DNA of 64,000 nt, from positions 62,001-126,000 of the forward strand of contig JALHNJ010000014.1 of NCBI GenBank assembly GCA_022843585.1, written 5' to 3'. The translations under genes and the position numbers were made by a program. The notes beneath the pieces are model-generated. The model was not told the DNA's origin. It saw only the letters and a program-made list of their open reading frames with translations, and searched no databases. The DNA comes from Chitinophagaceae bacterium. GTDB lineage: Bacteria > Bacteroidota > Bacteroidia > Chitinophagales > Chitinophagaceae. Shown here piece by piece: positions 40,417-64,000 of this stretch (within the stretch, counting starts at the first letter, position 1; each line of letters opens with the position of its first letter).

Positions 40417-40737
40417 ATGAAAAAGGGAATGATCAAAGTAAGTGTAATGTATCCAAATGGAGAGGATAAAAATTTCAACATGGAATACTATATCAACAAC
40501 CATGTGCCACTTGTTTCAAAAACATTGGGTGATGCTTTAAAAATCGCAAGCTATGATAAAGGAGTAGGCGGTGGAGCACCAGGTACTGCTGTAACCTATG
40601 TTGCCATAGCCAATTTATATTTCAATACCATGGAAGAATTTGGACAGGCATTCGCTGCGGGAGCACCAACATTAATGGCCGATTTACCCAATTTTACCAA
40701 TATAGAGCCGGTGGTACAGATAAGCGAAGTAATGTGA
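40417..40737 (+). CDS. EthD family protein
   Basis: 106 residues with the EthD dimeric alpha-beta barrel pattern: I-K-V-S-V-M-Y-P-N at the start, Y-Y-I-N-N-H-V-P-L (His in the usual position), and a repeated second half ending in F-T-N-I-E-P-V-V-Q-I. EthD relatives are small enzymes or binding proteins linked with organic compound metabolism. It sits 21 bp after FIST protein 1 and 17 bp before FIST protein 2, an odd insertion into a signalling operon. It could produce or bind the FIST ligand; this is speculative. Confidence 0.82.
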   Translation: MKKGMIKVSVMYPNGEDKNFNMEYYINNHVPLVSKTLGDALKIASYDKGVGGGAPGTAVTYVAIANLYFNTMEEFGQAFAAGAPTLMADLPNFTNIEPVVQISEVM

Positions 40738-40754
40738 TTGTAAAACCAGCAGGA

Positions 40755-43058: not shown

Positions 43059-43083
43059 AGCGGTACTAAAAAGATATTACAAC

Positions 43084-45279: not shown

Positions 45280-47313
45280 GTGAAACTATTTGTAAAAATA
45301 ATTTTCTTTCTGCTGCTGCCTGGTTGGCTCAGTGCACAAACCGGGACTTACTACGATTATAATTATTACAGCCAAAACCGGTTTGACAGTTTGCAATTGC
45401 TTTTTAAAAGCACCTCCAACGATTCAGTAAAAATGGCTGTATCCAGGGATCTTGGTTTGTATTATAATGAGTCAAAAACCGATAGTGGTTTTTATTTTCA
45501 TTCCGTTCAATTGAAATTAGCCCAACAATTAAAATTGAAATTGTGGGAAGCAGATGCTTATGACATTTCAGGTTATGTGCTTACAAGCATAGGAAATTAT
45601 CCCCTGGCACTGGAATACTTTTTACATGCATTACGAATTGCGGAAGACCCGAAAACGGAAAAGAATATTTGGCGGATCACAAAATTTTCAGAGAAAGCAG
45701 ATCCGTATGTTGCCCGTATGACGGTGCTGGCGAATATTCATAATGATATGAATGTGCTATATAAAATGTCGGGTAATACAAACAAGCATCTTGTAAGCCT
45801 TTTTGAAGCTCAAAAAATTGCAACAAATATTAAAGATACCATCATGTTATCTTTTACTGCAATGAACCTGGGCAATACCTACAAGGATTTAAATAAATTG
45901 GATTCAGCACTGATCTATGAAAAAAGGGCAGTAAGCTATGCAGAGCAAACCGGGTTTAAAGTGTATTATGGATACATGCTAGGCTTACAAGCAGATATAT
46001 ATGCAGCAATGAATAAATCAGATTCTGCAAGCAAGTACTATCTGCAATCAATATATCTTAATAAGGTTCAGCGAACCTATTCTAACCAGGCAAGGTTTAG
46101 TCTTGCTTATGCAAAATTATTGAGCCATAAAAACATAATAGACTCCGCCCTTTATTATGCAAAATCAGGGTTAAATATTTATACCACCACTAATGAACTT
46201 GCCGGTAAACTAAATGCATACAAAACACTTTCATCTATCTATAAAAAAATAAAGAATAACGACAGTGCTTTTTACTACCAGGAATTGGCCATTGCGGCTA
46301 ATGATAGCCTTGCCAATGCAGATAAAGTAAAGCAGTTTGAGAATATTGGATTTGATCAGCAGCTAAAAGTACAGGAACTGGAAAAGGAAAAAGTAATAAC
46401 GCAAAACAGGAACAGAACATATGCTTTTATTGCTGGTTCTGCCTTTTTTCTTTTAATAGGATTGCTCCTTTACAGGAACAACCGCCAAAAACAAAAAGCT
46501 AATAAAATTTTAGAAACAACACTAGCCAATTTAAAATCCACCCAATCCCAACTGATACAATCAGAAAAAATGGCTTCGTTGGGAGAACTCACTGCCGGCA
46601 TTGCCCATGAAATTCAAAACCCGTTAAACTTCGTCAATAATTTTTCGGATGTAAGTACAGAACTGGTGGATGAAATGAACGAAGAAATTGATAAAGGAAA
46701 TCTGGAAGATGCAAAGCAAATAGCACAAGACCTGAAACAAAATCTCGAAAAAATAAATCATCATGGCAAACGGGCTGGTGATATTGTAAAAGGAATGTTG
46801 CAGCACAGCCGTAGCAGCAGCGGACAAAAAGAGCCAACGGATATTAATGCATTAGCCGACGAATATTTGCGCTTAGCTTATCATGGACTAAGGGCAAAAG
46901 ACAAAACTTTCAATGCAACATTAAAAACAGGCTATGATGAAAGCATTGGCAATATCAATATCATTCCGCAGGATATAGGAAGAGTAATCTTGAATTTAAT
47001 TACGAATGCTTTCTATGCCGTACATCAAAAATCAAAACAAGGTCTTACAGGTTATGAACCAACTGTTGCAATCAGCACTAAGAAAGAAGGCAACAATGTT
47101 TTCATTGAGGTAATAGATAATGGCAGCGGTATTCCATTAAAAGTATTAGATAAAATCTTTCAACCATTCTTTACCACCAAGCCAACAGGACAGGGAACAG
47201 GGTTAGGCTTATCATTGAGTTATGATATTGTAAAAGCACATGGTGGGGAATTGAGGGTAGAGACGAAAGAGGGAGAAGGGGCAACGTTTATTATTGTTTT
47301 ACTAGTTAATTAA
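45280..47313 (+). CDS. TPR-transmembrane histidine kinase 1
   Basis: 677 residues, starting with GTG. The signal peptide ends ...WLSAQ, then come about 360 helical residues with TPR-like repeats (for example N-L-G-N-T-Y-K-D-L-N-K-L-D-S-A-L and similar), one membrane span around 381-401, a short coiled coil, and the kinase core with His443. The layout puts the TPR part in the periplasm and the kinase in the cytoplasm, so it likely senses a periplasmic protein or peptide partner. The gene is 9 bp after the sensorless kinase. Its core from S-E-K-M-A-S to the H-G-K-R-A helix is almost the same as that kinase, suggesting recent duplication or gene conversion. Confidence 0.92.
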   Translation: MKLFVKIIFFLLLPGWLSAQTGTYYDYNYYSQNRFDSLQLLFKSTSNDSVKMAVSRDLGLYYNESKTDSGFYFHSVQLKLAQQLKLKLWEADAYDISGYVLTSIGNYPLALEYFLHALRIAEDPKTEKNIWRITKFSEKADPYVARMTVLANIHNDMNVLYKMSGNTNKHLVSLFEAQKIATNIKDTIMLSFTAMNLGNTYKDLNKLDSALIYEKRAVSYAEQTGFKVYYGYMLGLQADIYAAMNKSDSASKYYLQSIYLNKVQRTYSNQARFSLAYAKLLSHKNIIDSALYYAKSGLNIYTTTNELAGKLNAYKTLSSIYKKIKNNDSAFYYQELAIAANDSLANADKVKQFENIGFDQQLKVQELEKEKVITQNRNRTYAFIAGSAFFLLIGLLLYRNNRQKQKANKILETTLANLKSTQSQLIQSEKMASLGELTAGIAHEIQNPLNFVNNFSDVSTELVDEMNEEIDKGNLEDAKQIAQDLKQNLEKINHHGKRAGDIVKGMLQHSRSSSGQKEPTDINALADEYLRLAYHGLRAKDKTFNATLKTGYDESIGNINIIPQDIGRVILNLITNAFYAVHQKSKQGLTGYEPTVAISTKKEGNNVFIEVIDNGSGIPLKVLDKIFQPFFTTKPTGQGTGLGLSLSYDIVKAHGGELRVETKEGEGATFIIVLLVN

Positions 47314-47318
47314 ATCGA

Positions 47319-49286
47319 ATGAAAAAATTATTTTTATTGATCCTGGCTTCCTGCTCAATTTTCATAAACTCATATGGTCAAAGTTCCCCGGAAGAGATAA
47401 AGAGGATGAAGGATCAATTATTAATAGCAAAACATGATTCAATAAAGGTTGGCTTGACCTATATGTTGGCCTATGGGTATCGATTTTCTAATATCGACTC
47501 TTCTCTTTTTTATTCTGATGTTACCATTGCTTTAGCAGATAAATTCAATTTACCTTCTATTAAAGCGCAGATGTTATCGCTGAAAGGAGCTACTGTTCTA
47601 GAGGCTGGTAAACTACCTGAATCGCTGCGATTTCAATTTGAAGCAATGGGAATAAGTGAAAAGATAAAAGACACTTCCAATATTGCCTTTGCATTAAACC
47701 GGATCGGAAATATATATATGGAATTGGGCGATTATAGAAAAGCGAATGAGTATTATTTTCAGTCAAAAGACTTATTTGATAAAATTGCTGATAGTGGAAT
47801 GGTCTATAATGAATTGTCAAATATTGGAAACATTTATGACCTCATGCAAATTCCCGATTCCGGATTGTACTATCAACAGATCGTATATGAAGCATCGCTT
47901 ACAACTACTGACAGACAGAAATTTACCCGCCCGGAAATGATGTTTAGAATGGGCAATGCATATAGTTTGAAAGGGAATAAAGAGAAGGCAATGTATTTTT
48001 ATAAGCAGGGTATTAAAGAAGCAAATATTGATAATGATACCAGGAACCTGACTATGAATAACCTGTTCCTTGCAAAACTATACGATGAACTGAATATGCC
48101 CGACTCTAGTATCAAGTATGCCTACAATGCAATACAAACGGGTAGAACAATTACATTCAGAAAAGGTGTTTATGATGCTTCTTTACTGATCAGTGGTTTG
48201 TATAAAAAAAGAAATCAGAATGACAGTGCCTATAAATATTTATTGATTGCCAACGTTGAAAAAGATAGCTTAACCGGCACAAAAAGATTCCAGGAATTAC
48301 AGCGTATTGTGTTAGATGAGCAAGAACGGGAAAGGAATGCAGAAGCGGAAAGAATTGCTGACCGAAACAGGCAAAGACAAATGGCCCTTTTAGCAGGACT
48401 GGGATTATTTTTAATTATCGCTACTATTCTCTTTCGGAACAATAAGCAAAAGCAAAAAACAAACAGGGCATTAGAAAATACCTTGACAAGACTTAGACTA
48501 ACGCAATCCCAACTCGTTCAATCCGAAAAAATGGCCAGCCTTGGAGAGCTCACCGCAGGCATTGCCCATGAAATTCAAAACCCGTTAAACTTCGTCAATA
48601 ATTTTAGCGAGGTAAATACTGAATTGATTGATGAGATGAAAATTGAAATGGATAAAGGAAACATCGACGATGCAAAAGTAATTGCAGATGATATAAAAGA
48701 GAATGAACAAAAAATAAACCATCACGGTAAAAGAGCCGATGCCATTGTAAAAGGAATGTTGCAACATAGCAGCAGTGGAAGCGGAAAAAAAGAACCTACT
48801 GATATTAATAAACTGGCCGATGAATATTTACGATTGGCTTATCATGGGTTAAGAGCAAAAGACAAATCCTTTAATGCAACGATGAAAACAGATTTTGATG
48901 AAAGTGTTGGCAACATAAATATCATTCCGCAGGATATTGGAAGGGTTATTCTCAACCTCATCACTAATGCATTTTATGCCACCAACGAAAAACAGAAGCA
49001 AGGCCTTGCGAACTATGAACCTATTGTTACAGTAAAGACTTCTAAAATCCCCCTTTCGGGGGGTGGGGGGGCTGTTATTATTAGAGTTGCTGATAATGGC
49101 AACGGCATTCCTCAAAAAGTCTTAGATAAAATATTTCAACCATTTTTCACCACCAAACCAACCGGGCAGGGAACAGGTTTGGGTTTATCATTGAGTTATG
49201 ATATTGTAAAAGCACATGGCGGAGAAATAAAAGTTGACACAAAAGAAAATGAGGGAACAGTATTTATTATTCAGTTACCTCTTTAA
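47319..49286 (+). CDS. TPR-transmembrane histidine kinase 2
   Basis: 655 residues: signal peptide (about 1-21), TPR-like repeats with R-I-G-N-I-Y-M-E-L-G-D-Y-R-K-A-N-E-Y, a membrane span at about 354-373, then the kinase core with His417 and the same F-T-T-K-P-T-G-Q-G-T-G-L-G-L box as its neighbours. An oddity lies in the ATP-binding domain at 49049..49071: a GC-rich palindromic stretch adds I-P-L-S-G-G-G-G-A in frame between two beta strands. A matching insert occurs at the same place in the kinase at 59715. Starts 5 bp after the previous kinase. Confidence 0.92.
   Translation: MKKLFLLILASCSIFINSYGQSSPEEIKRMKDQLLIAKHDSIKVGLTYMLAYGYRFSNIDSSLFYSDVTIALADKFNLPSIKAQMLSLKGATVLEAGKLPESLRFQFEAMGISEKIKDTSNIAFALNRIGNIYMELGDYRKANEYYFQSKDLFDKIADSGMVYNELSNIGNIYDLMQIPDSGLYYQQIVYEASLTTTDRQKFTRPEMMFRMGNAYSLKGNKEKAMYFYKQGIKEANIDNDTRNLTMNNLFLAKLYDELNMPDSSIKYAYNAIQTGRTITFRKGVYDASLLISGLYKKRNQNDSAYKYLLIANVEKDSLTGTKRFQELQRIVLDEQERERNAEAERIADRNRQRQMALLAGLGLFLIIATILFRNNKQKQKTNRALENTLTRLRLTQSQLVQSEKMASLGELTAGIAHEIQNPLNFVNNFSEVNTELIDEMKIEMDKGNIDDAKVIADDIKENEQKINHHGKRADAIVKGMLQHSSSGSGKKEPTDINKLADEYLRLAYHGLRAKDKSFNATMKTDFDESVGNINIIPQDIGRVILNLITNAFYATNEKQKQGLANYEPIVTVKTSKIPLSGGGGAVIIRVADNGNGIPQKVLDKIFQPFFTTKPTGQGTGLGLSLSYDIVKAHGGEIKVDTKENEGTVFIIQLPL
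49049..49071 (+). repeat. GC-rich palindromic repeat inserted in frame in a histidine kinase gene
   Basis: CCCCC-TTT-C-GGGGGG-T-GGGGGGG. The C and G runs form a hairpin. The AT-rich gene has no other such run. The homologous position in the kinase gene at 59715 has a near copy (61715..61737), and the other four kinase genes have none. Confidence 0.7.
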
Positions 49287-50424: not shown

Positions 50425-53400
50425 ATGAAGTTGACTAAACAGATAAAAGCAGATCTAGCAAAAGCCTATCAATGTGCTATGGAGATAAGTATACTTGATA
50501 TGAAGGCACCGCTTCGTTACATTAACCAGTACATTGCTGAAAACGTAAGCGGCTATGGCACTGCGGCCGATGAAAAGGTACAATCGAGAGAAGACTACAG
50601 GAAAATGCTTATGAAAAGCCGGCAACAGGCTAAAGGCATGTTGTTTAAAGCAAAGATCATTACTCCATACCGTCCAAAATTTACTGATGAAACCACTGCA
50701 AAGTTTCACGACGAAATAGTGGTTCAAATTGGCGACAACAAAAATAAGCACAGCATTCATCTATACATGAGTTGTGTATATAAATACCAGTTCGATAAGT
50801 GGCAATTGGTCTTGTTTCATGGCTCTATGCCTGATGCGGCAAGCACCACAGAAGATACCTTTCATCTTGGTGAAGCACAAAAAAAGCTACAGGAGCTTGA
50901 GCAAGTAGTTACACAGCGAACAGCAGATTTGCAAATCAAAACCCGGGAATTAGAAATTGAAGCATCATTGGAAAGAGTAAGAGCAGTAACGATGGGCATG
51001 AATAAACCGGGTGATATTCTGAATATCTGCAAAGTTTTTTTTAACGAATTACAATCACTCGGCTTTAAAGATTTGCGAAATACCCTTATTAACTTTTGGG
51101 ATGATGAAAATGGACAACTGCATGATTATGATTACTCCGATTTTGCCGGCGGGAACTTTGCCAAACTTGCTTACAGCAGTCACCCCGCATTTGCAGCATT
51201 TCAAAAGAAAATACGAAAAGCGAAAGATGCTTTTGCAAAACTGGTTATCAATAAACAGGGATTAAAAAGCTGGCAACAAAGAAGACGAAGCAGTGGCGAA
51301 TACAAAGACCCACGGCTTAATAAAATTTCTGCGCTGTATTATTATTTCTACTCCACCGGAGTGGGTGCGTTGGGCATTTCCACTTTTAGCCCTATCTCAA
51401 AAGATGAGGTGGAGGTGTTGAAAAAATTCCGCAATGTATTTGATATGGCCTATCAACGATATGTTGATATTCAAAAAGCAGAAGCACAGGCAAGAGAAGT
51501 TCAGATAGAACTGGCACTGGAAAGAGTAAGGGCGGCTGCTATGGCTATGAGAGCTTCAACTGAAATTGGTAACCTTATTTACCATTTGTATGGTGAGCTT
51601 AATAAACTGGATGCCCAACTTGAACGTTGCTTTATAATGATTGTGAACCCGGAGAACCTGGGTATTACGTGGTGGATGGCAGGCATGGAAGGTCTCTTAA
51701 ATGAAAATGGCTTTTTTGTTCAATACAATCAGCATCCAACACACCTGCTGTATTTGAAGCATTGGAAAAATCACACAAAAAAATGGAACTATCTTTTTAA
51801 AGGGAAAGAAAAAAAGGATTGGGATATTTTTGGGTTTACCCAAACAGACCTGTCTCAACTTCCTGCACCGGTGAAAGCAGGTATGTCGGCAGTAAGATCC
51901 GTTTATCTTTCAGGTTCTTCTGATACATTTGGTTGCCTTGTTACAGGTAGCATGGAGCAACTAAGTGATGGACACCAGGAAATCATTAGTCGGTTTGCCA
52001 CTGTATTCAATCAAACCTATACTCGTTTTCTCGACTTAAAAAAAGCAGAAGCACAGACAAGAGAAGCAGAGATAGAATTAGCATTAGAAAGAGTAAGAGC
52101 CAGAACAATGGCTATGCAGCACAGCAACGAATTACCTGAAGCTGCAAATCTTTTATTTCAACAAGTGCAATTACTGGGTATGCCGGCATGGAGTGCTGGT
52201 TATTGTACCTGGAATGATGATAAAAAAAGTGCTGTTACACTTTGGATGAGCAGCGAAGGCGTATTGCAACCACCCTTTACTGCCCCTACAACAAAAGATG
52301 AATTATTTATTGAAATGCGGAAGGGTGCGGAAGAAAATAAAGCATTACATGTAGTTGAAATGGGTGGCAAAAAATTAGTGAGGCATTACCAATATATGCG
52401 TACACTCCCGGTGGTGGGTGAAATACTGGATTCAATTATTAAAGCAGGTCATCCCTTACCCACTTTTCAGATAATGCACCAGGCTTATTTCTCAAAAGGT
52501 TTCTTGTTGTTCATTACCTATGAACCTGTACCTGATGCTCATGAAATTTTTCAGCGTTTTGGAAAAGTGTTTGACCAGACGTATACCCGCTTTCTCGATC
52601 TGCAAAAAGCAGAAGCACAGGCAAAAGAAGCAATGATTGAAGCTGCATTGGAAAAAGTGAGAAGCCGTTCATTGGCTATGCACAAAAGTGATGAGCTGAA
52701 TGAAGTAGTCATGGTATTGTTTGAAAGACTAAAAGATTTGCAGATTCCAGTAACTGCAGTGGGCATCCATATTTTCTCCGAAGGTTCAAAAGACCTGAAC
52801 GTATACGTATGCGGAGATATTGGAAATGGCCTGGCCATCAATAATTATCTCCTTCCTTATTTTAATCATCCTATTGCCGATGATTTATACGATGCACATG
52901 GGAAGGGATTGGATTTTTTTGTAGGGAACTATTCAAAGAATCAAAAAAACAGTTTTTATAAACATCTGTTTGAACATTCTGCATTAAGGGATTTATCGGA
53001 TGATATTAAGAACATGATTTTCCAAAGCGAGTCTTACTCCATTACCATGGCGCCGGTTAAAAATTCAGTGATTACGGTGAATGATTTTGAAGGAAAGCCA
53101 CTTTCGGATGCTGAAGCAGATGTAGTAAAACGCTTTGCCAAAGTATTTGAACAGGCATATATTCGTTTCCTCGATTTACAAAAAGCAGAAGCACAGGCAA
53201 GAGAAGCGCAGATAGAAGGGGCATTGGAAAGAGTACGTTCTCAATCGATGGGAATGCAAACCAGTAAGGATTTGAGTAATGTTACTACTGCAATGTTCGA
53301 GCAGCTGAGAATGCTTGGAGGCGAATTATATGCCACCGGAATAGTGTTTTGTGATAAACATGAACATGATGTGGAACAGTGGCACAGCGTACCGGGGGCA

Positions 53401-56400
53401 GGCATGTTATCTCCATTTATTGTGCCTGTTGATTTGGACTACATTCATCAATACCGGTACGATCAATGGAAAAAAGGCGTTGAATTGTTTTCTGTTGAAA
53501 TACCCGAAGATTTTATTGCGCAGCACTTTGAGGCGATGTTCAACCTGCCAACAGTAAAGGCCGTATTGGATGATTTTGCAGCAAAAAATATCCCGATGCC
53601 CGAAACGCCAAGCTGGGAAATAGATTATGGAGCATCATTCAAACATGGATATATCCTGGTGTCGGCACTTCAGCCTTTCAGTAGTGCAAACATTCTTCCT
53701 CGCTTTGCAAAAGTTTTTGAACAAACCTATACACGGTTTCTTGATCTGCAAAAAGCCGAAGCACAGGCAAGGGAAGCACAAATAGAAGCAGCATTGGAAA
53801 AAGTCCGTTCCCGTTCATTGGCTATGCAGAAGCCCGAAGAGCTGGTGGAAGTAGCTGAGTTATTAAGAGAAGAAATGGGGCATTTGGGTGTTGAAGAATT
53901 AGAAACAAGTTCCATATACCTTGTTGACAAAGAAAACAGGCAGGCAGAGTGTTGGTACGCCATCAAAGATATCAGGGATGGGAATAAAAAATTAGTGAGT
54001 GATGAAATGACCTTATTACTTCCTGATACCCGGGTAGGTAGTGAGATGTGGAAGTTTTATCAATCAGATAAAGCGCAGGCTTCCATTGTAATGAAAGGGG
54101 ATAACAGGAAAGAATGGATAAATTATTGTGCAAATCGGTCACAGGTTTTACAAGGATATTATGGCAATGAAATTCCTGAACGTACCTATCATTTGGTAAA
54201 GTTTAATGGTGGTTACATGGGTGCTGCATCACCCGGAGATATTTCATCTGAAAGCTGGGATTTGCTCAAAAGGGCAGCCGCAGTTTTTTCATTTGCATAC
54301 ACAAGGTTCAAAGATTTACAGGACGCAGCGGCCAGAGCAAGGGAAGCACAGATAGAATTGGCTTTGGAAAGAGTGCGGAGCAGGAGCATGGCCATGCATA
54401 AAAGTGATGAACTGAAAGAGGTGATACAAGTGGTGTATGAACAATTCATTCAGTTAGATATCCATATCGAGCACACTGGTTTTATTATCGATTATAAAGA
54501 AAGAGATGATATGCATATCTGGCTGGCTGACCAGTTTGTATCTCCTTTTGAAATAGCCATCCCCTATTTTGATTCACCGCATTGGAATAGTTTTGTCAAC
54601 GCCAAAAGGAAAGGCGAAAACTTCTTTGCCAACCTGCTGACGTTTGAAGAAAAAAATAAATTTTACCAGGATCTCTTTCAATTGATACCATCGCTGCCAG
54701 AAGAATCAAAGCAAACAATTTTTAGCAAACCTGGTCTTGCTATTTCTACCGTGTTGTTAGATAATGTTGGGCTGTACATCGAAAATTTCTCAGGTATTCC
54801 CTTTACTGATGAAGAGAATACTACGCTGATGCGCTTTGGAAAGGTATTTCAACAAACCTATACCCGTTTTCTTGATCTGCAAAAAGCAGAAGCACAGGCC
54901 AAAGAAGCACAGATAGAAGCAGCTTTGGAAAGAGTTCGTTCACGATCTTTAGCTATGCATTCCAGTGGGGAGCTGGGAGAAGTTGTTACCGTTGTATTGA
55001 ATAATTTGCTGGAGCTAGGTTATATCATTGATCAGGGTTCAGCGGCCCACCTGGCAATATTTTCCGAGGGCACAAAAGATTTTTTTCAATGGTCAGCAGA
55101 CCCGGCCCTTCCACATCCTGTGAGATCCTTCATTCCTTATACGGATCTCCCTATACTAACTGAATTCTGGGATGCCAGGCAAAAAGGGCATGACTTTTTA
55201 GCCAAGGTTTATTCTTTTGATGAAAAAAATACCTGGTTCAACTTCGCCTTTGAGCATTCAGATCTTAAACATATTCCAGGGGAATTAAAAAAACTCCTCC
55301 TGGAAAGTGAAACCTATGCTCATTCAATTGCGATAGAGAAGAACTCCGCAATTATCATAAACAGTATTACAGGCAATCAACTTTCAGGAAATCAAATTGA
55401 TATTCTAAGACGATTTTCAAAAGTTTTTGAACAAGCCTATGTACGTTTTCTTGATTTGCAAAAAGCCGAAGCACAGGCAAGAGAAGCAAGGATAGAAGCA
55501 GCGTTGGAGAAAGTTAGAAGTCGTTCACTGGCTATGCATAAAGCAGATGAACTGGGTGAAGTGATTACTGTTGTAGTGGAGAAATTACAAGAGCTGGATT
55601 TTTCAGTAAGTGATGGCGTGGCACTTATAACTTATAACGAGGGTTCAAAAGATCTGAATGAGTGGATGGCAAATCCAGGTTTCCCATCTGCCATTAAATT
55701 TCACCTTCCTTACTTTAAACATCCTGTACTAGCTAACCTGTGGAAGGCAAAGAATAATGGAACAGCGTTTTTAGAGGAACGATATACTGCGGAGGAAAAC
55801 AAATCTTTCTTAGATCATATTTTTAAGCACAGCGATTTTAAACACACTCCCCAACCGGTAAAAGATTATTGCCTGGCTGCTAACACTTACGCTACTTCAA
55901 TTGCCTTTCAGAAAAACACTTCCATATTTATTAACGACTACTCAGGTAAATCGCTTTCAGAGCAGGAGATTGACATTTTAAAACGTTTTTCAAAAGTATT
56001 TGAGCAAGCCTACATCCGTTTTCTCGATCTTCAAAAAGCCGAAGCACAGGCAAGAGAAGCAAAGATTGAAATGGCGTTGGAAAAGATCCGTTCAAGAACT
56101 ATGGCTATGCAGCATAGTGATGAGTTGCCTGAAGCTGCTAACCTGTTATTCCTCGAAGTTCAGGCATTGGGAATTCCGGCATGGAGTTGCGGATACAATG
56201 TTTTGGCAGAAGATAAAAAAACAAGTGATTGCTGGATGAGTAGTGAGGGAGCTATCCAGGAACCGTTTAACCTGTATTTCACGGAAGAGGCTTCTTTTAT
56301 AGAATGGTATAATTTTATTCAGAGTGATGAAAACTTCTTTGTTCAGGAACTGGGAGGTGAAGCATTGGTTCAGCATTACAATTACATGCGGAATATCCCC

Positions 56401-59400
56401 AGGCTTGGCGAAGTGATCAAAAAGCTGGAAGATGCAGGCATTTCGTTACCCACTTATCAAATCAATCACCTGTGTAAGTATGCATATGGTTTTCTTTTGT
56501 TCATTACCTACGAACCGGTGCCCGATGCACATGATCTGTTCAAACGTTTCACTAAAGTTTTTGAACAGACCTATACCCGTTTCCTTGATTTGCAGAAAGC
56601 AGAAGAGCAAACAAGAGAAGCTCAGATAGAACTTTCACTGGAACGCATACGGGCAAAAGTTACAGCCATGAAAGTATCATCAGACCTGTTAGATATTGTA
56701 GTCACTATGCGGACGGAGTTTGTGAAACTTGGTCATGAAGCACATTATTTCTGGCACATGCGATGGCTGCCGGATATGTATGAAAAAGCAATGACATCAG
56801 GTGATGGTTCCCGTATTGGTCATGTGATGACATTGCCCCGTCATATTCATGGTGATGTGCCGCTGATTTCCAATTGGGAAAAAACAAATGAGCCAACAGT
56901 AGTATATGCAATGGATGCAGAAGCAGCGGTGGATTATGTAACTAAAATGATCAACCTCGGAAATTTTGAACAGGTTGATCCTAACTCTCCAACGCTGGAT
57001 GATATCCGACATATTGGGGGTCTTACTTTCATCATGGCCCGCACCACACATGGCGAAATAGGTTATAGTTTACCCGGAGTAGTTACACATCCGCCTGCTG
57101 AAGGTATAGCAACCGTTGTTCGCTTTGCTTCGGTATTTGATTTAGCCTATCGCCGTTTTGAAGATCTGAAAAGTTCGGAAAAACAAATTCGGGAAGCACA
57201 AATTGAATTGGCATTGGAAAGAGTGCGGGCAAGAAGTTTAGCCATGCACAAAAGCGAAGAACTGGCGGATCTTTCGCTGGAGTTGGTAAAGCAGGTGCAG
57301 GCCTTGGACGTAGCTACCTGGTTTTGCGCATTTAATATTTACGATGAAAACCCGCAAAGCTCATTGGAATGGGGCAGTAATGGCATTGGAACATTTCCAA
57401 AATACCGAACACCAAGAGAACATGTTTTTCTGAAGTATTATGAAGCAGGGCAAAAGGGAGAAACATTTTTAATCAATACCATTGCCGAAGATGAATGTGT
57501 TGCACATTATGAATACCTGTGCAGTTTGCCGGGTGTTGGTGAACAGCTATTGCAAATGAAAGCGGCTGGTATTCCCTTCCCTGCTTTTCAAATAGACCAT
57601 GTAGCTTTTATGAAATATGGCTATGTGCTTTTTATAACGTATGAGCCGGTGCCCGAAGCCCACGATATATTTATTCGCTTTGCAAAAGTGTTTGAACAAA
57701 CCTATACCCGTTTCCTCGATTTGCAAAAAGCAGAAGCACAGGCAAAGGAAGCACAGATTGAAGCTTCGTTGGAAAGAGTGAGAAGTAAAACCATGGCGAT
57801 GCATAATAGCAAGAATGTGGGTGAGAGTGTTGCAGCTTTATTTGATGAACTTACAGCCCTTGGAGTTCTTACTTCATTCGACCGTTGCGGCATCGGTATT
57901 ATGCAACCCAATGAAATGATGGAGTTATGGACTGCAGAAAAAGCAACAGGAAAAACAGAATTGACAATCGGCCATTTGAATATGCGGCTCCATACATTGC
58001 TCAAAAATGTTTATCAAAATTGGCTTGATAAAAAACAAACTTATGAATACATACTGGAAGGAAATGACAAGGTTGCCTACTATGAAGCCATGGGCAAACA
58101 AACTAACTACAAAATCAGGAAAGACTATTATTCAGCACACGAAAGGATAGTGCATACTGATTTCTTTTTTAAAGAAGGTTGCCTGTATGTATTCTCATTA
58201 AATGAGTTTACAACAGAAGCAACTTTAATTTTCATTCGTTTTGTAAATGTATTCGGGCAAACCTATCGTCGTTACCTCGATTTACAAAAGGCAGAAGCAC
58301 AGGCCAAAGAAGCACAGATAGAAGCAGCATTAGAAAGAGTAAGAAGCCGGACACTGGCCATGCAAAAAAGTGATGAACTGGCAGAAACAGCAGCTGAAGT
58401 ATTCAGACAACTAATCAACTTAGGCATTGAGCCCAACCGTTTATATATTGGTATTGTAAAAGAAGAAACGGGTGATATGGAAATGTGGGCAACTGATGAA
58501 GATGGTACACAGGTAGGAAAGAAATTTATGTTCAATAAAAATGAAAATTCTTCAGTAAAAAAACTTTTCGATGGCTGGCAGGCAAAAGAAAAATCAGTGA
58601 TAGTAGATATGCAGGGAAAAGAACTGGAAGATTATTTTCATTATCTGAATAATGTTATGCATATTCCATTTAAAGGCGGACTTGCTCAAAAGCGAAGAGT
58701 GCAGAGTGTTGCTTATTTCAGCAAAGGATTTATTGGTATGGCTTCACCCGACGGGCAAGGTGATGAAACAATACAATTATTAGAACGTTTTGCAGCTGTA
58801 TTCAACCTCACTTTTACCCGTTTTAATGATTTAAAAATTGCAGAAGCACATGCCGAACAGGCAGAACAGGATTTAATTGCTATTAAAGAAGCCAAGCAAA
58901 AAGCAGAAGAAGCATTAACGGAGTTGCAGGCAACCCAAAAGCAACTGATACAAAGTGAAAAAATGGCGAGCCTTGGAGAACTTACCGCAGGCATTGCACA
59001 TGAAATTCAAAACCCGTTAAACTTCGTCAACAACTTTAGTGAAGTAAGTAAAGAGTTGCTGGATGAAATGAAAGAAGCCATAGAAAAAGGAGATACTGAA
59101 GAAGCAAAAGAAATCATGAATGATGTGATTCAGAATCTGGAAAAGATAAATCACCATGGTAAACGGGCTGATGGTATTGTAAAAGGAATGTTGCAGCATA
59201 GCCGTAGCAGCAGCAACCAAAAAGAGGCAACTGATATTAATGCCTTAGCAGATGAATATTTGCGGTTAGCTTATCATGGTTTACGGGCAAAAGACAAATC
59301 CTTCAATGCAACCTTGAAAACAGAATATGATGAAAGTATTGGCAAGGTTAGTATCATTCCGCAGGATATGGGAAGAGTGATTCTCAATTTAATTACCAAT

Positions 59401-59703
59401 GCGTTTTATGTAGTCGCAGAAAAGAAAAAGGAAAGTATTGAAGGATACGAACCAACTGTTTCGGTAAGTACAAAGAAGATGGGTGACAAAATGGAAGTGA
59501 GTGTAAAGGATAACGGCAATGGTATTCCGCCGAAAATATTAGACAAAATATTTCAACCGTTCTTTACAACCAAGCCAACAGGACAAGGAACTGGGTTAGG
59601 GTTGAGTTTGAGTTATGATATTGTAAAAGCACATGGAGGTGAGTTAAAGGTAGAAACAAAAGAAGGAGAGGGAAGTGAATTTATTATTCAATTACCAATT
59701 TGA
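50425..59703 (+). CDS. Giant soluble histidine kinase with about fourteen tandem GAF-like modules
   Basis: 3092 residues with no membrane span. Residues 1-135 resemble a SnoaL/NTF2-like domain, then a coiled coil (about 145-190). From about 190 to 2800 there are some fourteen modules of about 187 residues, each ending F-x-K-V-F-E-Q-x-Y-x-R-F-L-D-L and joined by a helical linker Q-K-A-E-A-Q-A-R-E-A-Q-I-E followed by A-L-E-R-V-R-S-R-S-x-A-M. Modules fall into at least four sequence types; one type (about 3, 5, 10, 12) keeps F-I-T-Y-E-P-V-P-x-A-H, another (4, 7, 8, 9) keeps L-P-Y-F-x-H-P. The C-terminal kinase core has His2859 and all ATP-binding boxes. The modules look like GAF-family sensors. 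The whole may integrate many signals into one kinase. Reading frame is open throughout, so it is not a pseudogene. Confidence 0.9.
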   Translation: MKLTKQIKADLAKAYQCAMEISILDMKAPLRYINQYIAENVSGYGTAADEKVQSREDYRKMLMKSRQQAKGMLFKAKIITPYRPKFTDETTAKFHDEIVVQIGDNKNKHSIHLYMSCVYKYQFDKWQLVLFHGSMPDAASTTEDTFHLGEAQKKLQELEQVVTQRTADLQIKTRELEIEASLERVRAVTMGMNKPGDILNICKVFFNELQSLGFKDLRNTLINFWDDENGQLHDYDYSDFAGGNFAKLAYSSHPAFAAFQKKIRKAKDAFAKLVINKQGLKSWQQRRRSSGEYKDPRLNKISALYYYFYSTGVGALGISTFSPISKDEVEVLKKFRNVFDMAYQRYVDIQKAEAQAREVQIELALERVRAAAMAMRASTEIGNLIYHLYGELNKLDAQLERCFIMIVNPENLGITWWMAGMEGLLNENGFFVQYNQHPTHLLYLKHWKNHTKKWNYLFKGKEKKDWDIFGFTQTDLSQLPAPVKAGMSAVRSVYLSGSSDTFGCLVTGSMEQLSDGHQEIISRFATVFNQTYTRFLDLKKAEAQTREAEIELALERVRARTMAMQHSNELPEAANLLFQQVQLLGMPAWSAGYCTWNDDKKSAVTLWMSSEGVLQPPFTAPTTKDELFIEMRKGAEENKALHVVEMGGKKLVRHYQYMRTLPVVGEILDSIIKAGHPLPTFQIMHQAYFSKGFLLFITYEPVPDAHEIFQRFGKVFDQTYTRFLDLQKAEAQAKEAMIEAALEKVRSRSLAMHKSDELNEVVMVLFERLKDLQIPVTAVGIHIFSEGSKDLNVYVCGDIGNGLAINNYLLPYFNHPIADDLYDAHGKGLDFFVGNYSKNQKNSFYKHLFEHSALRDLSDDIKNMIFQSESYSITMAPVKNSVITVNDFEGKPLSDAEADVVKRFAKVFEQAYIRFLDLQKAEAQAREAQIEGALERVRSQSMGMQTSKDLSNVTTAMFEQLRMLGGELYATGIVFCDKHEHDVEQWHSVPGAGMLSPFIVPVDLDYIHQYRYDQWKKGVELFSVEIPEDFIAQHFEAMFNLPTVKAVLDDFAAKNIPMPETPSWEIDYGASFKHGYILVSALQPFSSANILPRFAKVFEQTYTRFLDLQKAEAQAREAQIEAALEKVRSRSLAMQKPEELVEVAELLREEMGHLGVEELETSSIYLVDKENRQAECWYAIKDIRDGNKKLVSDEMTLLLPDTRVGSEMWKFYQSDKAQASIVMKGDNRKEWINYCANRSQVLQGYYGNEIPERTYHLVKFNGGYMGAASPGDISSESWDLLKRAAAVFSFAYTRFKDLQDAAARAREAQIELALERVRSRSMAMHKSDELKEVIQVVYEQFIQLDIHIEHTGFIIDYKERDDMHIWLADQFVSPFEIAIPYFDSPHWNSFVNAKRKGENFFANLLTFEEKNKFYQDLFQLIPSLPEESKQTIFSKPGLAISTVLLDNVGLYIENFSGIPFTDEENTTLMRFGKVFQQTYTRFLDLQKAEAQAKEAQIEAALERVRSRSLAMHSSGELGEVVTVVLNNLLELGYIIDQGSAAHLAIFSEGTKDFFQWSADPALPHPVRSFIPYTDLPILTEFWDARQKGHDFLAKVYSFDEKNTWFNFAFEHSDLKHIPGELKKLLLESETYAHSIAIEKNSAIIINSITGNQLSGNQIDILRRFSKVFEQAYVRFLDLQKAEAQAREARIEAALEKVRSRSLAMHKADELGEVITVVVEKLQELDFSVSDGVALITYNEGSKDLNEWMANPGFPSAIKFHLPYFKHPVLANLWKAKNNGTAFLEERYTAEENKSFLDHIFKHSDFKHTPQPVKDYCLAANTYATSIAFQKNTSIFINDYSGKSLSEQEIDILKRFSKVFEQAYIRFLDLQKAEAQAREAKIEMALEKIRSRTMAMQHSDELPEAANLLFLEVQALGIPAWSCGYNVLAEDKKTSDCWMSSEGAIQEPFNLYFTEEASFIEWYNFIQSDENFFVQELGGEALVQHYNYMRNIPRLGEVIKKLEDAGISLPTYQINHLCKYAYGFLLFITYEPVPDAHDLFKRFTKVFEQTYTRFLDLQKAEEQTREAQIELSLERIRAKVTAMKVSSDLLDIVVTMRTEFVKLGHEAHYFWHMRWLPDMYEKAMTSGDGSRIGHVMTLPRHIHGDVPLISNWEKTNEPTVVYAMDAEAAVDYVTKMINLGNFEQVDPNSPTLDDIRHIGGLTFIMARTTHGEIGYSLPGVVTHPPAEGIATVVRFASVFDLAYRRFEDLKSSEKQIREAQIELALERVRARSLAMHKSEELADLSLELVKQVQALDVATWFCAFNIYDENPQSSLEWGSNGIGTFPKYRTPREHVFLKYYEAGQKGETFLINTIAEDECVAHYEYLCSLPGVGEQLLQMKAAGIPFPAFQIDHVAFMKYGYVLFITYEPVPEAHDIFIRFAKVFEQTYTRFLDLQKAEAQAKEAQIEASLERVRSKTMAMHNSKNVGESVAALFDELTALGVLTSFDRCGIGIMQPNEMMELWTAEKATGKTELTIGHLNMRLHTLLKNVYQNWLDKKQTYEYILEGNDKVAYYEAMGKQTNYKIRKDYYSAHERIVHTDFFFKEGCLYVFSLNEFTTEATLIFIRFVNVFGQTYRRYLDLQKAEAQAKEAQIEAALERVRSRTLAMQKSDELAETAAEVFRQLINLGIEPNRLYIGIVKEETGDMEMWATDEDGTQVGKKFMFNKNENSSVKKLFDGWQAKEKSVIVDMQGKELEDYFHYLNNVMHIPFKGGLAQKRRVQSVAYFSKGFIGMASPDGQGDETIQLLERFAAVFNLTFTRFNDLKIAEAHAEQAEQDLIAIKEAKQKAEEALTELQATQKQLIQSEKMASLGELTAGIAHEIQNPLNFVNNFSEVSKELLDEMKEAIEKGDTEEAKEIMNDVIQNLEKINHHGKRADGIVKGMLQHSRSSSNQKEATDINALADEYLRLAYHGLRAKDKSFNATLKTEYDESIGKVSIIPQDMGRVILNLITNAFYVVAEKKKESIEGYEPTVSVSTKKMGDKMEVSVKDNGNGIPPKILDKIFQPFFTTKPTGQGTGLGLSLSYDIVKAHGGELKVETKEGEGSEFIIQLPI
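51460..58830 (+). repeat. Tandem linker repeat in the giant kinase gene, about 550-580 bp period
   Basis: The linker coding sequence (CTCGATCTGCAAAAAGCAGA type) recurs near 51460, 52021, 52581, 53161, 53731, 54301, 54861, 55441, 56011, 56571, 57148, 57700 and 58261, with a degenerate last copy near 58810. Copies at 54301 and 57148 are diverged. Linker DNA is more alike between copies than the modules between, so the linkers may serve as recombination points that add, lose or swap modules. Confidence 0.85.
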
Positions 59704-59714
59704 AATGTAAAATT

Positions 59715-61958
59715 ATGTTGAAGCAATTTGTAAGGATTGTTTTGGAGAAAATAGTAGCAATTTCATTATTGCTAATGCTTGCACAACCTCTGGTGGCTCA
59801 GCAGAGTAAGGTAGATTCTGTCATATTCTTTCTCAACAAGAGTTTTGCTACGGAAACACTGGACTCACTCAGTTTAAAGAAAGTATTTGAAACCTTAAAT
59901 GGAGCTGTGTTGAGCAATAAGCATGTTGAACAAATAGAGCAGGCTTTAAAGAACTACAAAAACTGGGAAGGTAACGGGAGTATTGATACTGTGAGGTTAA
60001 TTATGCTGAGAACTATTGTCAATACCAATGCAGATAAAGCCATTGAGTATGGTAAGCTGCAAATTGAGCAATTAGACAAAATCAACACTGCAAAGGCCTC
60101 CGAATTGAGGAGCTACTATCTAAATACACTGCGGTTTCCTTTCAGAAATTCGAACAGGTTGGAGGAAGGGTTTCAATATTTTACAAGGAAACTGAATCAA
60201 TACAAATCAAGCAACGACTCTTCTTGCATTGCTGAGTGCCATTTTGTTTTAGGCGGCTTCTACAGAATTTCAGGCCTGGACGATTTGGCCATTTATAACA
60301 TGAAAAAATCAATTAGCTATATTGATTCATCTAAATATAAAAGGAAATGGATGAATAATATAGGTGTACTAGGATTTTATTACTATTTGAAAAACGACCC
60401 AACCGAGAGCATACGATATAACAGAATTTCAAACAATTACCACCTAAAAGATAGCTTAACTCATTCAATTACCTCGCAAAGAATGGCTTCAGCAATGCTT
60501 CTTGATAATCAATTAGACAGTGCTGCGTATTATATTAGATTGGCAAAATCAAGTAAGGATGCAAGCCGACCTGATATAACAGCAGCAATCCTTCAAACCG
60601 AAGCTGAATACAACATCCAGGCAGGAGCTTTTACAGAAGCGGATAGTCTTTTGAAAAAATGCTGGGAAGTAATTATTGAAAATAACCTCCAGGTGAATGC
60701 AGCAGCTGGAATTCAAGCCCCTGATTATTACCTCGCCCAGCTCCGCATTAAACAAAATAGACTGCCGGAGGCTATTGATTTGCTTACAAAAGATATTGCA
60801 CGGCTGCTGAACAACCGGGTGCTGATTCTGAGAGATTACAAGCTGATAGCAGAGTTGTATAAGAAAATGGGTAAGGGTAATGAAGCTGCTATTGCTTATG
60901 CCACTTATGTAGCCAAACTCGACAGCTTACAAACCGATCAGGAGAAATACCGCTCCATTACTTTTGAAGCAGAACAACAGTTGAATGAAAAGGAGCTTTC
61001 TATTGCCAGCCTCGAGAGTAAGAACAGAATCGCTTCACTCACCCGTAATTTTTTAATGGGTATTGCTGCACTTTTTGTATTGCTGGCAGCAGGCATATAC
61101 AGCAGGTTTCAGTTTAAAAAGAAAGCCAATAAGGTTTTGGAAAAGACTTTAGTTGATTTAAAATCTACCCAGTCCCAGTTAATTCAATCAGAAAAAATGG
61201 CCAGCCTGGGAGAACTCACCGCCGGCATTGCCCATGAAATTCAAAACCCATTAAACTTCGTTAATAATTTTTCGGAGGTAAATAAGGAATTACTAGTGGA
61301 GATGAAAGATGAAATTGAGAAAGGAAATGTGGATGAAGTAAATGCTTTAGTTGATGATGTAATTGCAAATGAAGAAAAAATAAATCACCACGGCAAAAGA
61401 GCCGATGCCATTGTAAAAGGAATGTTGCAACACTCCAATAGCGGTACCGGCAAAAAAGAACCTGCCAATATCAATGCACTGGCAGATGAATATTTAAGAC
61501 TGGCCTATCATGGTTTAAGAGCAAAAGATAAAACTTTCAATGCCACTATGAAAACTGATTTTGATGAAACCATCAGCAACATCAATATCATTCCTCAGGA
61601 TATTGGAAGAGTGATTTTGAATTTGATTACAAATGCATTTTATGTGGTCAACGAAAAATCAAAGCAAGGAATTGCCGGTTATGAACCAATTGTAACTGTG
61701 AAGACTTTCAAGAACCCCCCTTCGGGGGGCAGGGGGGCCGAAGTTTTCATCTCAGTAAAAGACAACGGCAACGGCATCTCACAAAAAATACTTGATAAAA
61801 TCTTTCAACCCTTCTTTACCACTAAACCAACCGGGCAGGGAACAGGTTTAGGGTTGAGTTTGAGTTATGATATTGTGAAGGCACATGGTGGGGAGTTGAA
61901 GGTGGAAACGAAGGAAGGGGAAGGAAGCAAATTTATAATTGTATTACCATCTAATTAA
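59715..61958 (+). CDS. TPR-transmembrane histidine kinase 3
   Basis: About 747 residues from the ATG at 59715, which opens directly into a signal peptide ending ...LVAQQ; a TTG at 59700 overlapping the giant gene's stop is a possible but less likely start. The periplasmic part (about 25-440) is helical with TPR-like repeats, longer than in its relatives. The membrane span lies at about 446-465, then coiled coil and kinase core with His507. The ATP-binding domain carries an in-frame GC-rich insert coding N-P-P-S-G-G-R-G-A at 61715..61737, as in the kinase at 47319. Confidence 0.92.
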   Translation: MLKQFVRIVLEKIVAISLLLMLAQPLVAQQSKVDSVIFFLNKSFATETLDSLSLKKVFETLNGAVLSNKHVEQIEQALKNYKNWEGNGSIDTVRLIMLRTIVNTNADKAIEYGKLQIEQLDKINTAKASELRSYYLNTLRFPFRNSNRLEEGFQYFTRKLNQYKSSNDSSCIAECHFVLGGFYRISGLDDLAIYNMKKSISYIDSSKYKRKWMNNIGVLGFYYYLKNDPTESIRYNRISNNYHLKDSLTHSITSQRMASAMLLDNQLDSAAYYIRLAKSSKDASRPDITAAILQTEAEYNIQAGAFTEADSLLKKCWEVIIENNLQVNAAAGIQAPDYYLAQLRIKQNRLPEAIDLLTKDIARLLNNRVLILRDYKLIAELYKKMGKGNEAAIAYATYVAKLDSLQTDQEKYRSITFEAEQQLNEKELSIASLESKNRIASLTRNFLMGIAALFVLLAAGIYSRFQFKKKANKVLEKTLVDLKSTQSQLIQSEKMASLGELTAGIAHEIQNPLNFVNNFSEVNKELLVEMKDEIEKGNVDEVNALVDDVIANEEKINHHGKRADAIVKGMLQHSNSGTGKKEPANINALADEYLRLAYHGLRAKDKTFNATMKTDFDETISNINIIPQDIGRVILNLITNAFYVVNEKSKQGIAGYEPIVTVKTFKNPPSGGRGAEVFISVKDNGNGISQKILDKIFQPFFTTKPTGQGTGLGLSLSYDIVKAHGGELKVETKEGEGSKFIIVLPSN
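61715..61737 (+). repeat. GC-rich palindromic repeat, second in-frame copy
   Basis: CCCCCC-TT-C-GGGGGG-CA-GGGGGG in the ATP-binding domain of TPR kinase 3, at the same place and frame as the copy at 49049..49071. Both code a Pro-Ser-Gly-Gly loop. Confidence 0.7.
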
Positions 61959-61969: not shown

Positions 61970-64000
61970 ATGAAAAATTTACTTGCCATAATTCTCTTTT
62001 TCTATTTCCCGTTGCAACTCTGTGCTCAAGTTCAAGTAGACAGTATGTCTCCGGGCTACAATCCATTTTTAGCAGATAGTCTGCGTTCAAGGATTGACCG
62101 GGATGACAACGACTCTACAAAAGCCTGGAACATGATTTTGCTTTACTGGGCAATTGAAGGGGTTCAGTCAGATAGTGCAATGGCTATTGCGAAACAAGCC
62201 TATGAATTCTCAAAAAGTAAGCAATTGAAATTTATGGAGGTCTATGCATTGATGGCCATAGGATATAATCAAAAAAACACGGGAGATTATGCTGAATCAT
62301 TAAAAACATACTTACAGGTATTTGAAATATTAGGGTATTCTTCTTTTCATGAAAGTAACAGACTACCTGATGCTGATGGTTCTGTTCTTGACAGGGAGAG
62401 TTTGCATCAATATGCAGAGACACAGAGACATATGGGTTTTTTACTTGGACAAGTTGGTAATAGAACGGAGGAGCTGAACAAATACAGAACAGCATTGAAG
62501 ATACATGAAGCATTAAAGGATGAACGCTTAGTAGCCATGACAACCATTAATATCGCTGAAGTTTACCTGGCGACGAATCTCCCTGATTCAGCTATACTAT
62601 TTGCAGAAAAAAGTTTAGGATATTACGAAAAACAAAATGTTCCTTTTTATGTAAAAACATATCTTGGTCATATCTATAATATTATCGGGGAATCCAATCT
62701 TTTAATTAAAAAATATGATTTGGCAGAAGAGGCTTTATGGAAAGCAGAAAAGGCCAATATCCAGTATAAGAATTTTAGAAATTTAATTCTAACGTATTTA
62801 TTCCGGGCAGAAATCTACAATCAAAAAAAGGAGTATGATTCCAGTTTGAACTATGCACACAAAGCCAGGGTAACAGCTATTGAAGTAGGGCTGAAAAGCT
62901 ATATCGCTAAAAGCTATGCCGCACTTGCCAAATCCTACCAGACACTCAATAAGCAGGATAGCGGGTATCATTATTTAAAACTGGCCGCTCCATTAATAGA
63001 CAGTCTTAACAAAGTAGAAAAAAACAATTTAATACGATATCAAAATATTCTATTTACAGAGAATCAGAATTTGCAAAGAATAGAAAAGGAGAAAACTGCA
63101 ACCCAGAACCGTATCCGGGTAATTTCACTTTTGAGCATACTTGGATTTATCCTCTTAATTGCTCTGCTGCTTTATCGAAATAACCGGCAAAAACAAAAAA
63201 CCAATAAAGTTTTAGAATCCACACTTACCAATTTAAAATCCACTCAATCCCAACTCATCCAATCCGAAAAAATGGCAAGCCTTGGAGAACTCACTGCCGG
63301 CATTGCCCATGAAATTCAAAACCCGTTGAATTTCGTCAACAACTTTTCTGAAGTAAATGAAGAGTTATTGGTTGAAATGAAAGATGAATTAGATAAAGGA
63401 AATATTGCTGATGCCAAAGCCATTGCAAATGATGCGATAGAGAATCAACAAAAAATCCTGCATCACGGCAAAAGAGCCGATGCAATAGTAAAAGGAATGC
63501 TGCAACACAGTCGTAGCAGTAGCGGCGCAAAAGAACCAACAGATATTAATGCATTAGCCGATGAATATTTAAGATTAGCCTATCACGGTTTAAGAGCAAA
63601 GGACAAATCATTTAATGCATCAACGAAAACAGATTTTGATGAAACGATTGACAACATCAACATTATTCCGCAGGATATTGGAAGGGTGATCCTCAATTTA
63701 ATTACCAATGCATTTTATGTAGTCAATGAAAAATCAAAACAAAATATTCAAGGATACGAACCAACTGTTTCGGTAAGTACAAAAAAAATCAACGGTAAAA
63801 TAGAAATAAAAGTTGCAGATAACGGCAATGGTATCTCTCAAAAAATATTAGATAAAATTTTTCAACCCTTCTTCACCACCAAACCCACCGGGCAAGGCAC
63901 TGGTTTAGGATTGAGTTTAAGTTATGATATTGTAAAAGCACATGGGGGAGAGTTGAAGGTGGAAACGAAGGAAGGTGAAGGTTCAACATTTATCATTCAA
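61970..64000 (+). CDS. TPR-transmembrane histidine kinase 4 (C-terminus cut by the window edge)
   Basis: Open from the ATG at 61970 to the window end, 677 codons. A signal peptide (ending ...LCAQ) is followed by about 350 helical residues with TPR-like repeats, a membrane span at about 383-402, and a kinase core with His447 and the complete F-T-T-K-P-T-G-Q-G-T-G-L-G-L box. By comparison with the others only the last few residues are missing. It follows TPR kinase 3 by 11 bp, so the operon continues at least to the edge. The sequence after the palindrome-bearing loop lacks the GC-rich insert. Confidence 0.92.
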   Translation, partial: MKNLLAIILFFYFPLQLCAQVQVDSMSPGYNPFLADSLRSRIDRDDNDSTKAWNMILLYWAIEGVQSDSAMAIAKQAYEFSKSKQLKFMEVYALMAIGYNQKNTGDYAESLKTYLQVFEILGYSSFHESNRLPDADGSVLDRESLHQYAETQRHMGFLLGQVGNRTEELNKYRTALKIHEALKDERLVAMTTINIAEVYLATNLPDSAILFAEKSLGYYEKQNVPFYVKTYLGHIYNIIGESNLLIKKYDLAEEALWKAEKANIQYKNFRNLILTYLFRAEIYNQKKEYDSSLNYAHKARVTAIEVGLKSYIAKSYAALAKSYQTLNKQDSGYHYLKLAAPLIDSLNKVEKNNLIRYQNILFTENQNLQRIEKEKTATQNRIRVISLLSILGFILLIALLLYRNNRQKQKTNKVLESTLTNLKSTQSQLIQSEKMASLGELTAGIAHEIQNPLNFVNNFSEVNEELLVEMKDELDKGNIADAKAIANDAIENQQKILHHGKRADAIVKGMLQHSRSSSGAKEPTDINALADEYLRLAYHGLRAKDKSFNASTKTDFDETIDNINIIPQDIGRVILNLITNAFYVVNEKSKQNIQGYEPTVSVSTKKINGKIEIKVADNGNGISQKILDKIFQPFFTTKPTGQGTGLGLSLSYDIVKAHGGELKVETKEGEGSTFIIQ

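What the first reader, a model, noticed from the sequence alone, without database searches (positions are those of the whole stretch)
50425..59703. A 3092-residue kinase with about fourteen tandem GAF-like sensor modules and a repeated linker
One open frame codes an NTF2-like domain, about fourteen modules of about 187 residues and a single histidine kinase core. Modules are divided by a near-constant helical linker whose DNA recurs every 550-580 bp. Modules group into at least four types, and types alternate (A at 3, 5, 10, 12; B at 4, 7-9; C-like at 6 and 14), so the order is a mosaic, not a simple tandem duplication. Seen directly: repeats, open frame, kinase boxes. Inference: each module is a separate input, or the chain is a long signalling rod whose length is set by recombination between linkers. 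I know of no described kinase with this many GAF-like modules, but I cannot search.
Basis: partly seen in the sequence, partly recalled or inferred. Interest (0 to 1): 0.92.

Follow-up and report, generated by a model that had tools for sequence, protein, structure and literature searches.

The report
Shuffled fourteen-sensor array on one kinase
A Bacteroidota bacterium strings fourteen different GAF-type sensor modules onto one histidine kinase, and its relatives carry the same kinds of modules in ever different order and number, as if sensors were cassettes swapped through a standard linker.

Summary
In detail: one 3092-aa frame codes an NTF2-like cap, 14 modules spaced 183-193 aa and one complete histidine kinase core. 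AlphaFold2 of one module pair (pLDDT 96) plus PDB comparison shows tandem GAF folds joined by a 48-residue helix, though Pfam, NCBIfam and PDB sequence searches name none of the modules. An assembly artefact is unlikely (longest exact repeat 38 bp).

It belongs to a widespread family without a library model: 37 of 392 sampled genomes of its phylum, 1-17 modules in complete frames, so 14 is not the record. By my typing, 76 of 76 complete arrays with four or more modules differ in module order. Long DNA blocks shared with relatives end at linkers (83 of 84 interior ends), and module halves agree in type in 703 of 711. Whole modules, linker to linker, are what moves.

Outputs vary: mostly kinase, rarely cyclase or SpoIIE. 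FIST (NosP-family) genes lie directly upstream of 20 of 29 testable frames with a 77-aa cap and of 0 of 201 other frames. REC and REC-cyclase genes follow a minority of arrays, and this genome has such a pair on another contig.

Ligands, signal integration and partners are inferred. A new variant of multi-GAF kinases.

The parts
50425..59703 (+). Array kinase, 3092 aa: NTF2-like cap, 14 GAF-fold modules, one histidine kinase core
50524..50835 (+). NTF2-like (SnoaL_3) domain, aa 34-137
50947..51495 (+). Module 1 (type 0)
51496..52062 (+). Module 2 (type 3)
52063..52626 (+). Module 3 (type 1)
52627..53202 (+). Module 4 (type 7)
53203..53772 (+). Module 5 (type 1)
53773..54342 (+). Module 6 (type 13)
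54343..54903 (+). Module 7 (type 4)
54904..55482 (+). Module 8 (type 7)
55483..56055 (+). Module 9 (type 7); GAF fold modelled
56056..56616 (+). Module 10 (type 1); GAF fold modelled
56617..57192 (+). Module 11 (type 15)
57193..57747 (+). Module 12 (type 1)
57748..58308 (+). Module 13 (type 8)
58309..58854 (+). Module 14 (type 2); its exit helix runs into DHp in the model
58972..59208 (+). HisKA (dimerisation and phospho-acceptor), aa 2850-2928
59362..59697 (+). HATPase_c, aa 2980-3091
39238..40395 (+). FIST-domain gene 1 (neighbour)
40734..41894 (+). FIST-domain gene 2 (neighbour)
43030..44232 (+). FIST-domain gene 3, directly before the capped zero-module kinase
44233..45270 (+). Sister kinase, 345 aa: 77-aa-type cap and kinase core, no modules
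45280..47313 (+). TPR histidine kinase (neighbour)
47319..49286 (+). TPR histidine kinase (neighbour)
59700..61958 (+). Histidine kinase directly after the array (no TPR seen by Pfam)
61970..64000 (+). TPR histidine kinase, runs off the window

Best explanation
This is a soluble, many-input histidine kinase. A row of GAF-fold modules, each most likely tuned to its own intracellular small molecule or cofactor, is joined by continuous helices that end in the dimerising helix of one kinase core, so many inputs bias one kinase/phosphatase switch. The array evolves as a cassette rack: whole modules, cut at the near-constant linker, are gained, lost and reordered, so arrays in different genomes hold different sets and orders from a shared dictionary of module types. 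The likely output is phosphotransfer to a single-domain REC and a REC-cyclase, giving a cyclic nucleotide. Neighbouring FIST (NosP-family) proteins probably feed the same pathway through the 77-aa cap of a sister kinase. Shown: architecture, GAF fold (modelled, one pair), linker-bounded shuffling, type-specific conservation, gene neighbourhoods. Inferred: ligands, signal passage along the rod, phosphotransfer partners, FIST docking.
Against: No ligand, kinase activity or phosphotransfer is shown; GAF domains can serve dimerisation only. REC genes lie within 4 kb downstream in only 15 of 53 loci with enough DNA, FIST within 4 kb upstream in 19 of 69; no receiver was found in the window's frames. 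In the window FIST stands before the sister kinase, not the array; 9 of 29 capped frames lack FIST directly upstream. Linker synonymous conservation is only weakly array-specific. Inner order is not fully random (0.719 against 0.654). Block ends at linkers are partly expected because the linker is the conserved part; among all blocks >=200 bp, 42 of 160 interior ends lie outside the zone.
Confidence: 0.7

Rival explanations
1. Structural rod. The GAF-fold modules bind no ligands; they make a long dimeric stalk or scaffold whose length, not chemistry, matters, and only the cap and last module signal.
For: Continuous helices between modules and into the kinase; module number varies from 1 to 17 in complete frames; the last module is often type 6 or 2 (44 of 57).
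Against: Cores differ by type and keep type-specific residues; same-type pairs inside an array are fewer than chance (141 against 175, sd 12), where a stalk could repeat one type.
Confidence: 0.15
2. Neutral expansion. Recombination at linkers multiplies and scatters modules without benefit; most inner modules are passengers.
For: High turnover of inner modules between close relatives while caps and kinase stay similar; near-random inner order.
Against: Long frames stay open, inner cores stay conserved by type across genomes, and fewer same-type pairs than chance.
Confidence: 0.1
3. Assembly artefact: copy number or order produced by collapse or chimeras of repeats.
For: Linker DNA repeats; contigs end within similar kinase genes.
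Against: Longest exact repeat 38 bp; modules 19-58% identical; like arrays in many separate assemblies, one of them a single-contig genome.
Confidence: 0.02

Closest known systems
Multi-GAF cyanobacteriochromes, e.g. PtxD/NpF2164 of Nostoc punctiforme, seven GAF domains (passages in PMC6696110 and PMC5812497)
   Same: Row of GAF domains in one signalling protein, several of them separate inputs
   Different: No photoreceptor family is matched by sequence; 14 modules; histidine kinase output; relatives carry other orders and numbers
Tandem-GAF and GAF-PHY proteins of known structure: PDE2A, PDE5A, PDE6, CyaB2, phytochromes
   Same: Fold and helical connection
   Different: Two units, not 14; 5-14% identity in the aligned rows; other outputs
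NosP-NosK (FIST protein and soluble histidine kinase; PMC12570481, passages); VpsV-VpsS (PMC4398556, one passage)
   Same: Stand-alone FIST gene next to a soluble kinase without its own sensor domain, as 43030-44232 and 44233-45270 here
   Different: The kinase here has a 77-aa cap, and relatives place GAF modules between cap and core; heme and NO untested; the nearby response regulators tested are REC-cyclase or REC-SpoIIE
Signalling helix and inter-GAF coiled coils (PMC1592074, passages)
   Same: Helical connector between signalling domains
   Different: The linker here is near-constant along the array, and shared DNA blocks end in it; not tested against an S-helix model

Membership tests
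GAF fold | Predicted structure matches GAF domains | tested here: met
   Modules 9-10. Other modules by homology only (profile, E<=1e-48 for each)
Pfam/NCBIfam GAF families | Sequence match to a GAF model | tested here: not met
   No GAF model among hits at E<=1 for any of 14 modules. I say GAF fold, not member of these families
GAF sensor domain | Ligand or cofactor in the pocket | not testable with these tools
   Only type-specific conservation
HisKA-type histidine kinase | HisKA and HATPase_c above cut-off; H, N, G1, G2 boxes | tested here: met
HisKA-type histidine kinase | Autophosphorylation and a cognate response regulator | not testable with these tools
   Candidate REC and REC-cyclase on another contig
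Cyanobacteriochrome | Bilin-binding cysteine in GAF | not tested
   No alignment to a cyanobacteriochrome was made
NosP/FIST system (neighbour genes) | FIST N and C domains in a stand-alone protein encoded beside a histidine kinase | tested here: met
NosP/FIST system (neighbour genes) | Heme-bound NO sensing and control of the kinase | not testable with these tools
   Precedent only (PMC12570481)

The most novel reading that the evidence does not exclude
Bacteroidota run a combinatorial sensor-cassette system. A dictionary of some tens of GAF-fold sensor types is exchanged through one standard helical linker, at the DNA level, within and between genomes. Each strain thus wires its own set of a dozen or more intracellular inputs into one kinase (or cyclase, or phosphatase), with swappable caps at the front, one of which docks FIST/NosP-type sensor proteins.
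Probability: 0.4. Interest if true: 0.88.

Novelty: new variant of a known kind. Interest (0 to 1): 0.72.

Why it matters
Sensor kinases are mostly studied with one or two inputs. A rack of 14 non-identical sensor modules on one core, rearranged between relatives, is a natural experiment in how far signals travel along helix-linked GAF chains and how many inputs one kinase can weigh. The boundary data give cut points, so single modules, deletions and swaps can be built and assayed. The module family matches no Pfam or NCBIfam model although about one in ten sampled genomes of the phylum carries it (37 of 392), and the FIST-cap pairing gives a directly testable docking prediction.

Tried and rejected
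Assembly artefact: rejected (like arrays in separate assemblies). Module identity by sequence: no hit above a cut-off in Pfam, NCBIfam or PDB. Full-length Pfam hits just under their cut-offs were set aside: DUF7951 'repeat of unknown function' 25.5 against 27 bits, ToxN 24.6 against 25, DCC1-like 25.4 against 27.8; none of the three appears when modules are scanned singly.

First module always type 0: seen in 51 of 57, then found biased, because the scan confirmed loci by module 1. In the phylum sample it is 3 of 19. Dropped.

Gene conversion inside each array: the synonymous excess sits in the linker (linker above core in 73 of 80 arrays), but the flanking columns also carry some (0.052), different genomes share nearly as much (0.070 against 0.099), and the GC3-matched difference is +0.018, positive in 55 of 79. 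Not claimed.

Block ends: the linker zone (<=32 aa after or <=35 aa before a module boundary) was fixed. For blocks >=200 bp 118 ends are inside and 42 outside; the short ones are linker matches with core remnants. Types depend on the clustering threshold (56, 37 or 31 types); small types are conserved partly because their members are few and close.

Rows dropped: L122 (= L046) and L116 (= L093) before order counts; still held L122. L131 and L141 repeat arrays of L056 and L039. L001-L034 overlap other loci and were left out from then on. From 37 genomes with matches, 20 stretches of 17 genomes were fetched. Structure alignments used 120 of 514 module pairs and 56 last-module-kinase stretches. 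Paper searches listed no description of such arrays; open-licence papers only.

Full report
WHAT IS THERE. The window carries an uninterrupted frame at 50425-59703 (+), 3092 aa. Fourteen linker motifs stand 183-193 aa apart. The N-terminus is a SnoaL_3/NTF2-like domain (32.5 bits alone, cut-off 22). The C-terminus is one histidine kinase, HisKA and HATPase_c above cut-off, with H, N, G1 and G2 box patterns once each. No 19-residue stretch is hydrophobic enough for a membrane helix (maximum 1.47). Cores of different modules are 5-45% identical while the linker is nearly constant. The longest exact DNA repeat is 38 bp. In the own genome the family is found only in this gene.

A FAMILY OF ARRAYS. 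The profile finds the family in 12 of 58 relatives and 37 of 392 genomes spread over the phylum, the own genome counted in both. Complete frames in the loci examined hold 1 to 17 modules, and one cut by its contig end holds 19. By record title the 78 loci are Bacteroidota or Ignavibacteria, but two MAG titles say Gammaproteobacteria and Proteobacteria.

SHUFFLED MODULES. Clustering 738 module cores gave 37 types, 9 of them singletons. The window reads 0-3-1-7-1-13-4-7-7-1-15-1-8-2. In four close relatives the NTF2 cap (71-95%), module 1 (85-94%) and kinase (73-93%) are conserved, while inner modules differ: L037 has the counterpart of module 7 before those of 2, 11 and 12, and L038 has that of 12 before 7. 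All 57 deduplicated complete arrays of four or more modules have different type orders, as do 19 more from the phylum sample, 76 of 76 in all. Inner order is close to random but not wholly (majority share 0.719, shuffles 0.654, sd 0.016). The last module is of type 6 in 25 of 57 and 12 of 19. That the first module is of type 0 (51 of 57) is a selection effect: it is 3 of 19 in the phylum sample.

THE UNIT IS LINKER TO LINKER. Between the window and arrays of 14 related loci, 54 DNA blocks of 350 bp or more were found; 83 of their 84 interior ends lie in a linker zone that is 36% of a module. I set that zone after seeing the ends, and the linker is the conserved part, so this alone is weak. The halves test is stronger: 711 of 727 modules could be typed on both core halves, and 703 agree, against 0.087 expected by chance; old chimeras that became a type of their own would escape it. 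Of 405 modules with a partner at least 60% identical elsewhere, 339 lack a next module at least 50% identical to the partner's. So whole modules move; recent chimeric cores are rare.

LINKER DNA. In the window, synonymous identity between module copies exceeds expectation in the linker (0.70 against 0.45 in the first ten columns) and not in the core (0.417 against 0.429). Over 80 arrays the excess is 0.099 in linker, 0.052 in the flanking columns and 0.003 in core; linker above core in 73. Arrays of different genomes share much of it (0.070), and the GC3-matched difference is small (+0.018, 55 of 79 positive, p 8e-5; window 0.200 against 0.154). It falls with kinase divergence. This fits linkers exchanged within and between genomes, or a nucleotide-level constraint; I cannot tell these apart.

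TYPE-SPECIFIC CORES. Aligned by type, the cores of 12 types examined keep 9-55 columns at 85% or more, against 1 in 60 modules drawn from all types. Type 4 keeps 42 columns over 47 members; types 10, 13 and 15 keep 51-55 but have only 12-17 members. Same-type pairs inside one array are fewer than expected (141 against 175, sd 12). This fits different jobs for different types, most simply different ligands. No ligand is known.

OUTPUTS AND CAPS. Of 81 frames complete at the 3' end, 69 end in the kinase core; three end in SpoIIE-like and four rows (one a duplicate) in cyclase-like sequence, and five are short or broken. Pfam was run on one of each: L043 SpoIIE, L046 Guanylate_cyc. Front caps: NTF2-like in 45 of 93 5'-complete frames and in 25 of 27 frames of the phylum sample; a 77-aa cap in another group; TPR-like with membrane helix in one, by eye (L061).

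NEIGHBOURS AND PATHWAY. The window holds three FIST genes, the only ones found in this genome, a zero-module kinase with the 77-aa-type cap directly after the third, and a row of kinases with cores 74-85% identical. FIST occurs in 10 of 12 array-bearing and 10 of 46 array-free relatives (Fisher p 1.5e-4; kinship not corrected). The two array-bearing genomes without FIST, G022 and G036, have cyclase-ended arrays. In distinct array loci FIST lies within 4 kb upstream in 19 of 69 and downstream in 3 of 53, and 64 of 64 FIST frames are on the array's strand. FIST stands within 150 bp upstream of 9 of 15 cap-plus-module frames and 11 of 14 cap frames without modules, but of 0 of 59 NTF2 arrays, 0 of 114 other kinases and 0 of 28 other module frames; frames with too little upstream DNA were set aside, the window is one of the positives, and its FIST genes seeded the profile. 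Three of the nine misses (L078, L041, L038) have FIST further up. NosP proteins are FIST-domain heme proteins that sense NO and control a neighbouring soluble kinase (PMC12570481, passages). I infer that the 77-aa cap is a FIST docking site. REC genes lie within 4 kb downstream in 15 of 53 loci and upstream in 5 of 69. L077 shows the whole row with touching genes: FIST, FIST, cap-array-kinase, a 671-aa gene, REC, REC-cyclase. No receiver was found in the window's frames, but the own genome has kinase, REC and REC-cyclase at the end of contig C2, the latter two 78% and 81% identical to those of L077.

HOW IT WORKS. My best reading: a cytosolic dimer in which many GAF inputs act through one long helical spine on one kinase/phosphatase switch, with REC and REC-cyclase as likely target. 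Array-cyclase fusions point to the same output by another route. Shown: architecture, fold of a modelled pair, shuffling unit, neighbourhoods. Inferred: dimer, ligands, integration, phosphotransfer, docking.

KNOWN OR NEW. Tandem GAF sensors are known; the most found in my paper searches is seven, in PtxD (PMC6696110 and PMC5812497, passages). Searches listed no description of this family. I file it as a new variant of multi-GAF histidine kinases, distinguished by number, by modules without a library model, and by shuffling at a standard linker.

Noticed in passing
39238-44232: Three FIST genes with a beta-lactamase-family serine hydrolase gene (41907-43058) among them; no homologue of the hydrolase was seen among the frames of the fetched array loci.
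   Followed up: partly
44233-64000 and L130: At least six histidine kinases in a row with cores 74-85% identical but different inputs; the contig ends just after.
   Followed up: partly
L155 (end of contig C2) and L130 (end of contig C14): One contig end holds the 3' part of a membrane kinase gene followed by REC and REC-cyclase, the other the 5' part of a gene; they may be one cluster.
   Followed up: partly
L037:3631-11104: Array split into two overlapping frames (9 modules, then 2 modules and kinase); frameshift or real split.
   Followed up: no
L137: Two giant arrays (14 and 13 modules found) side by side in a single-contig genome.
   Followed up: no
L040, L091: Arrays on contigs titled Gammaproteobacteria and Proteobacteria MAGs; misbinning or horizontal transfer.
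   Followed up: no
linkers, e.g. 54886 and 58291: Linker codons are conserved at synonymous sites even between genomes; cause unknown.
   Followed up: partly
49299-50399: CotH-like protein, below the Pfam cut-off, between kinases; an 86% identical neighbour lies in L035.
   Followed up: no
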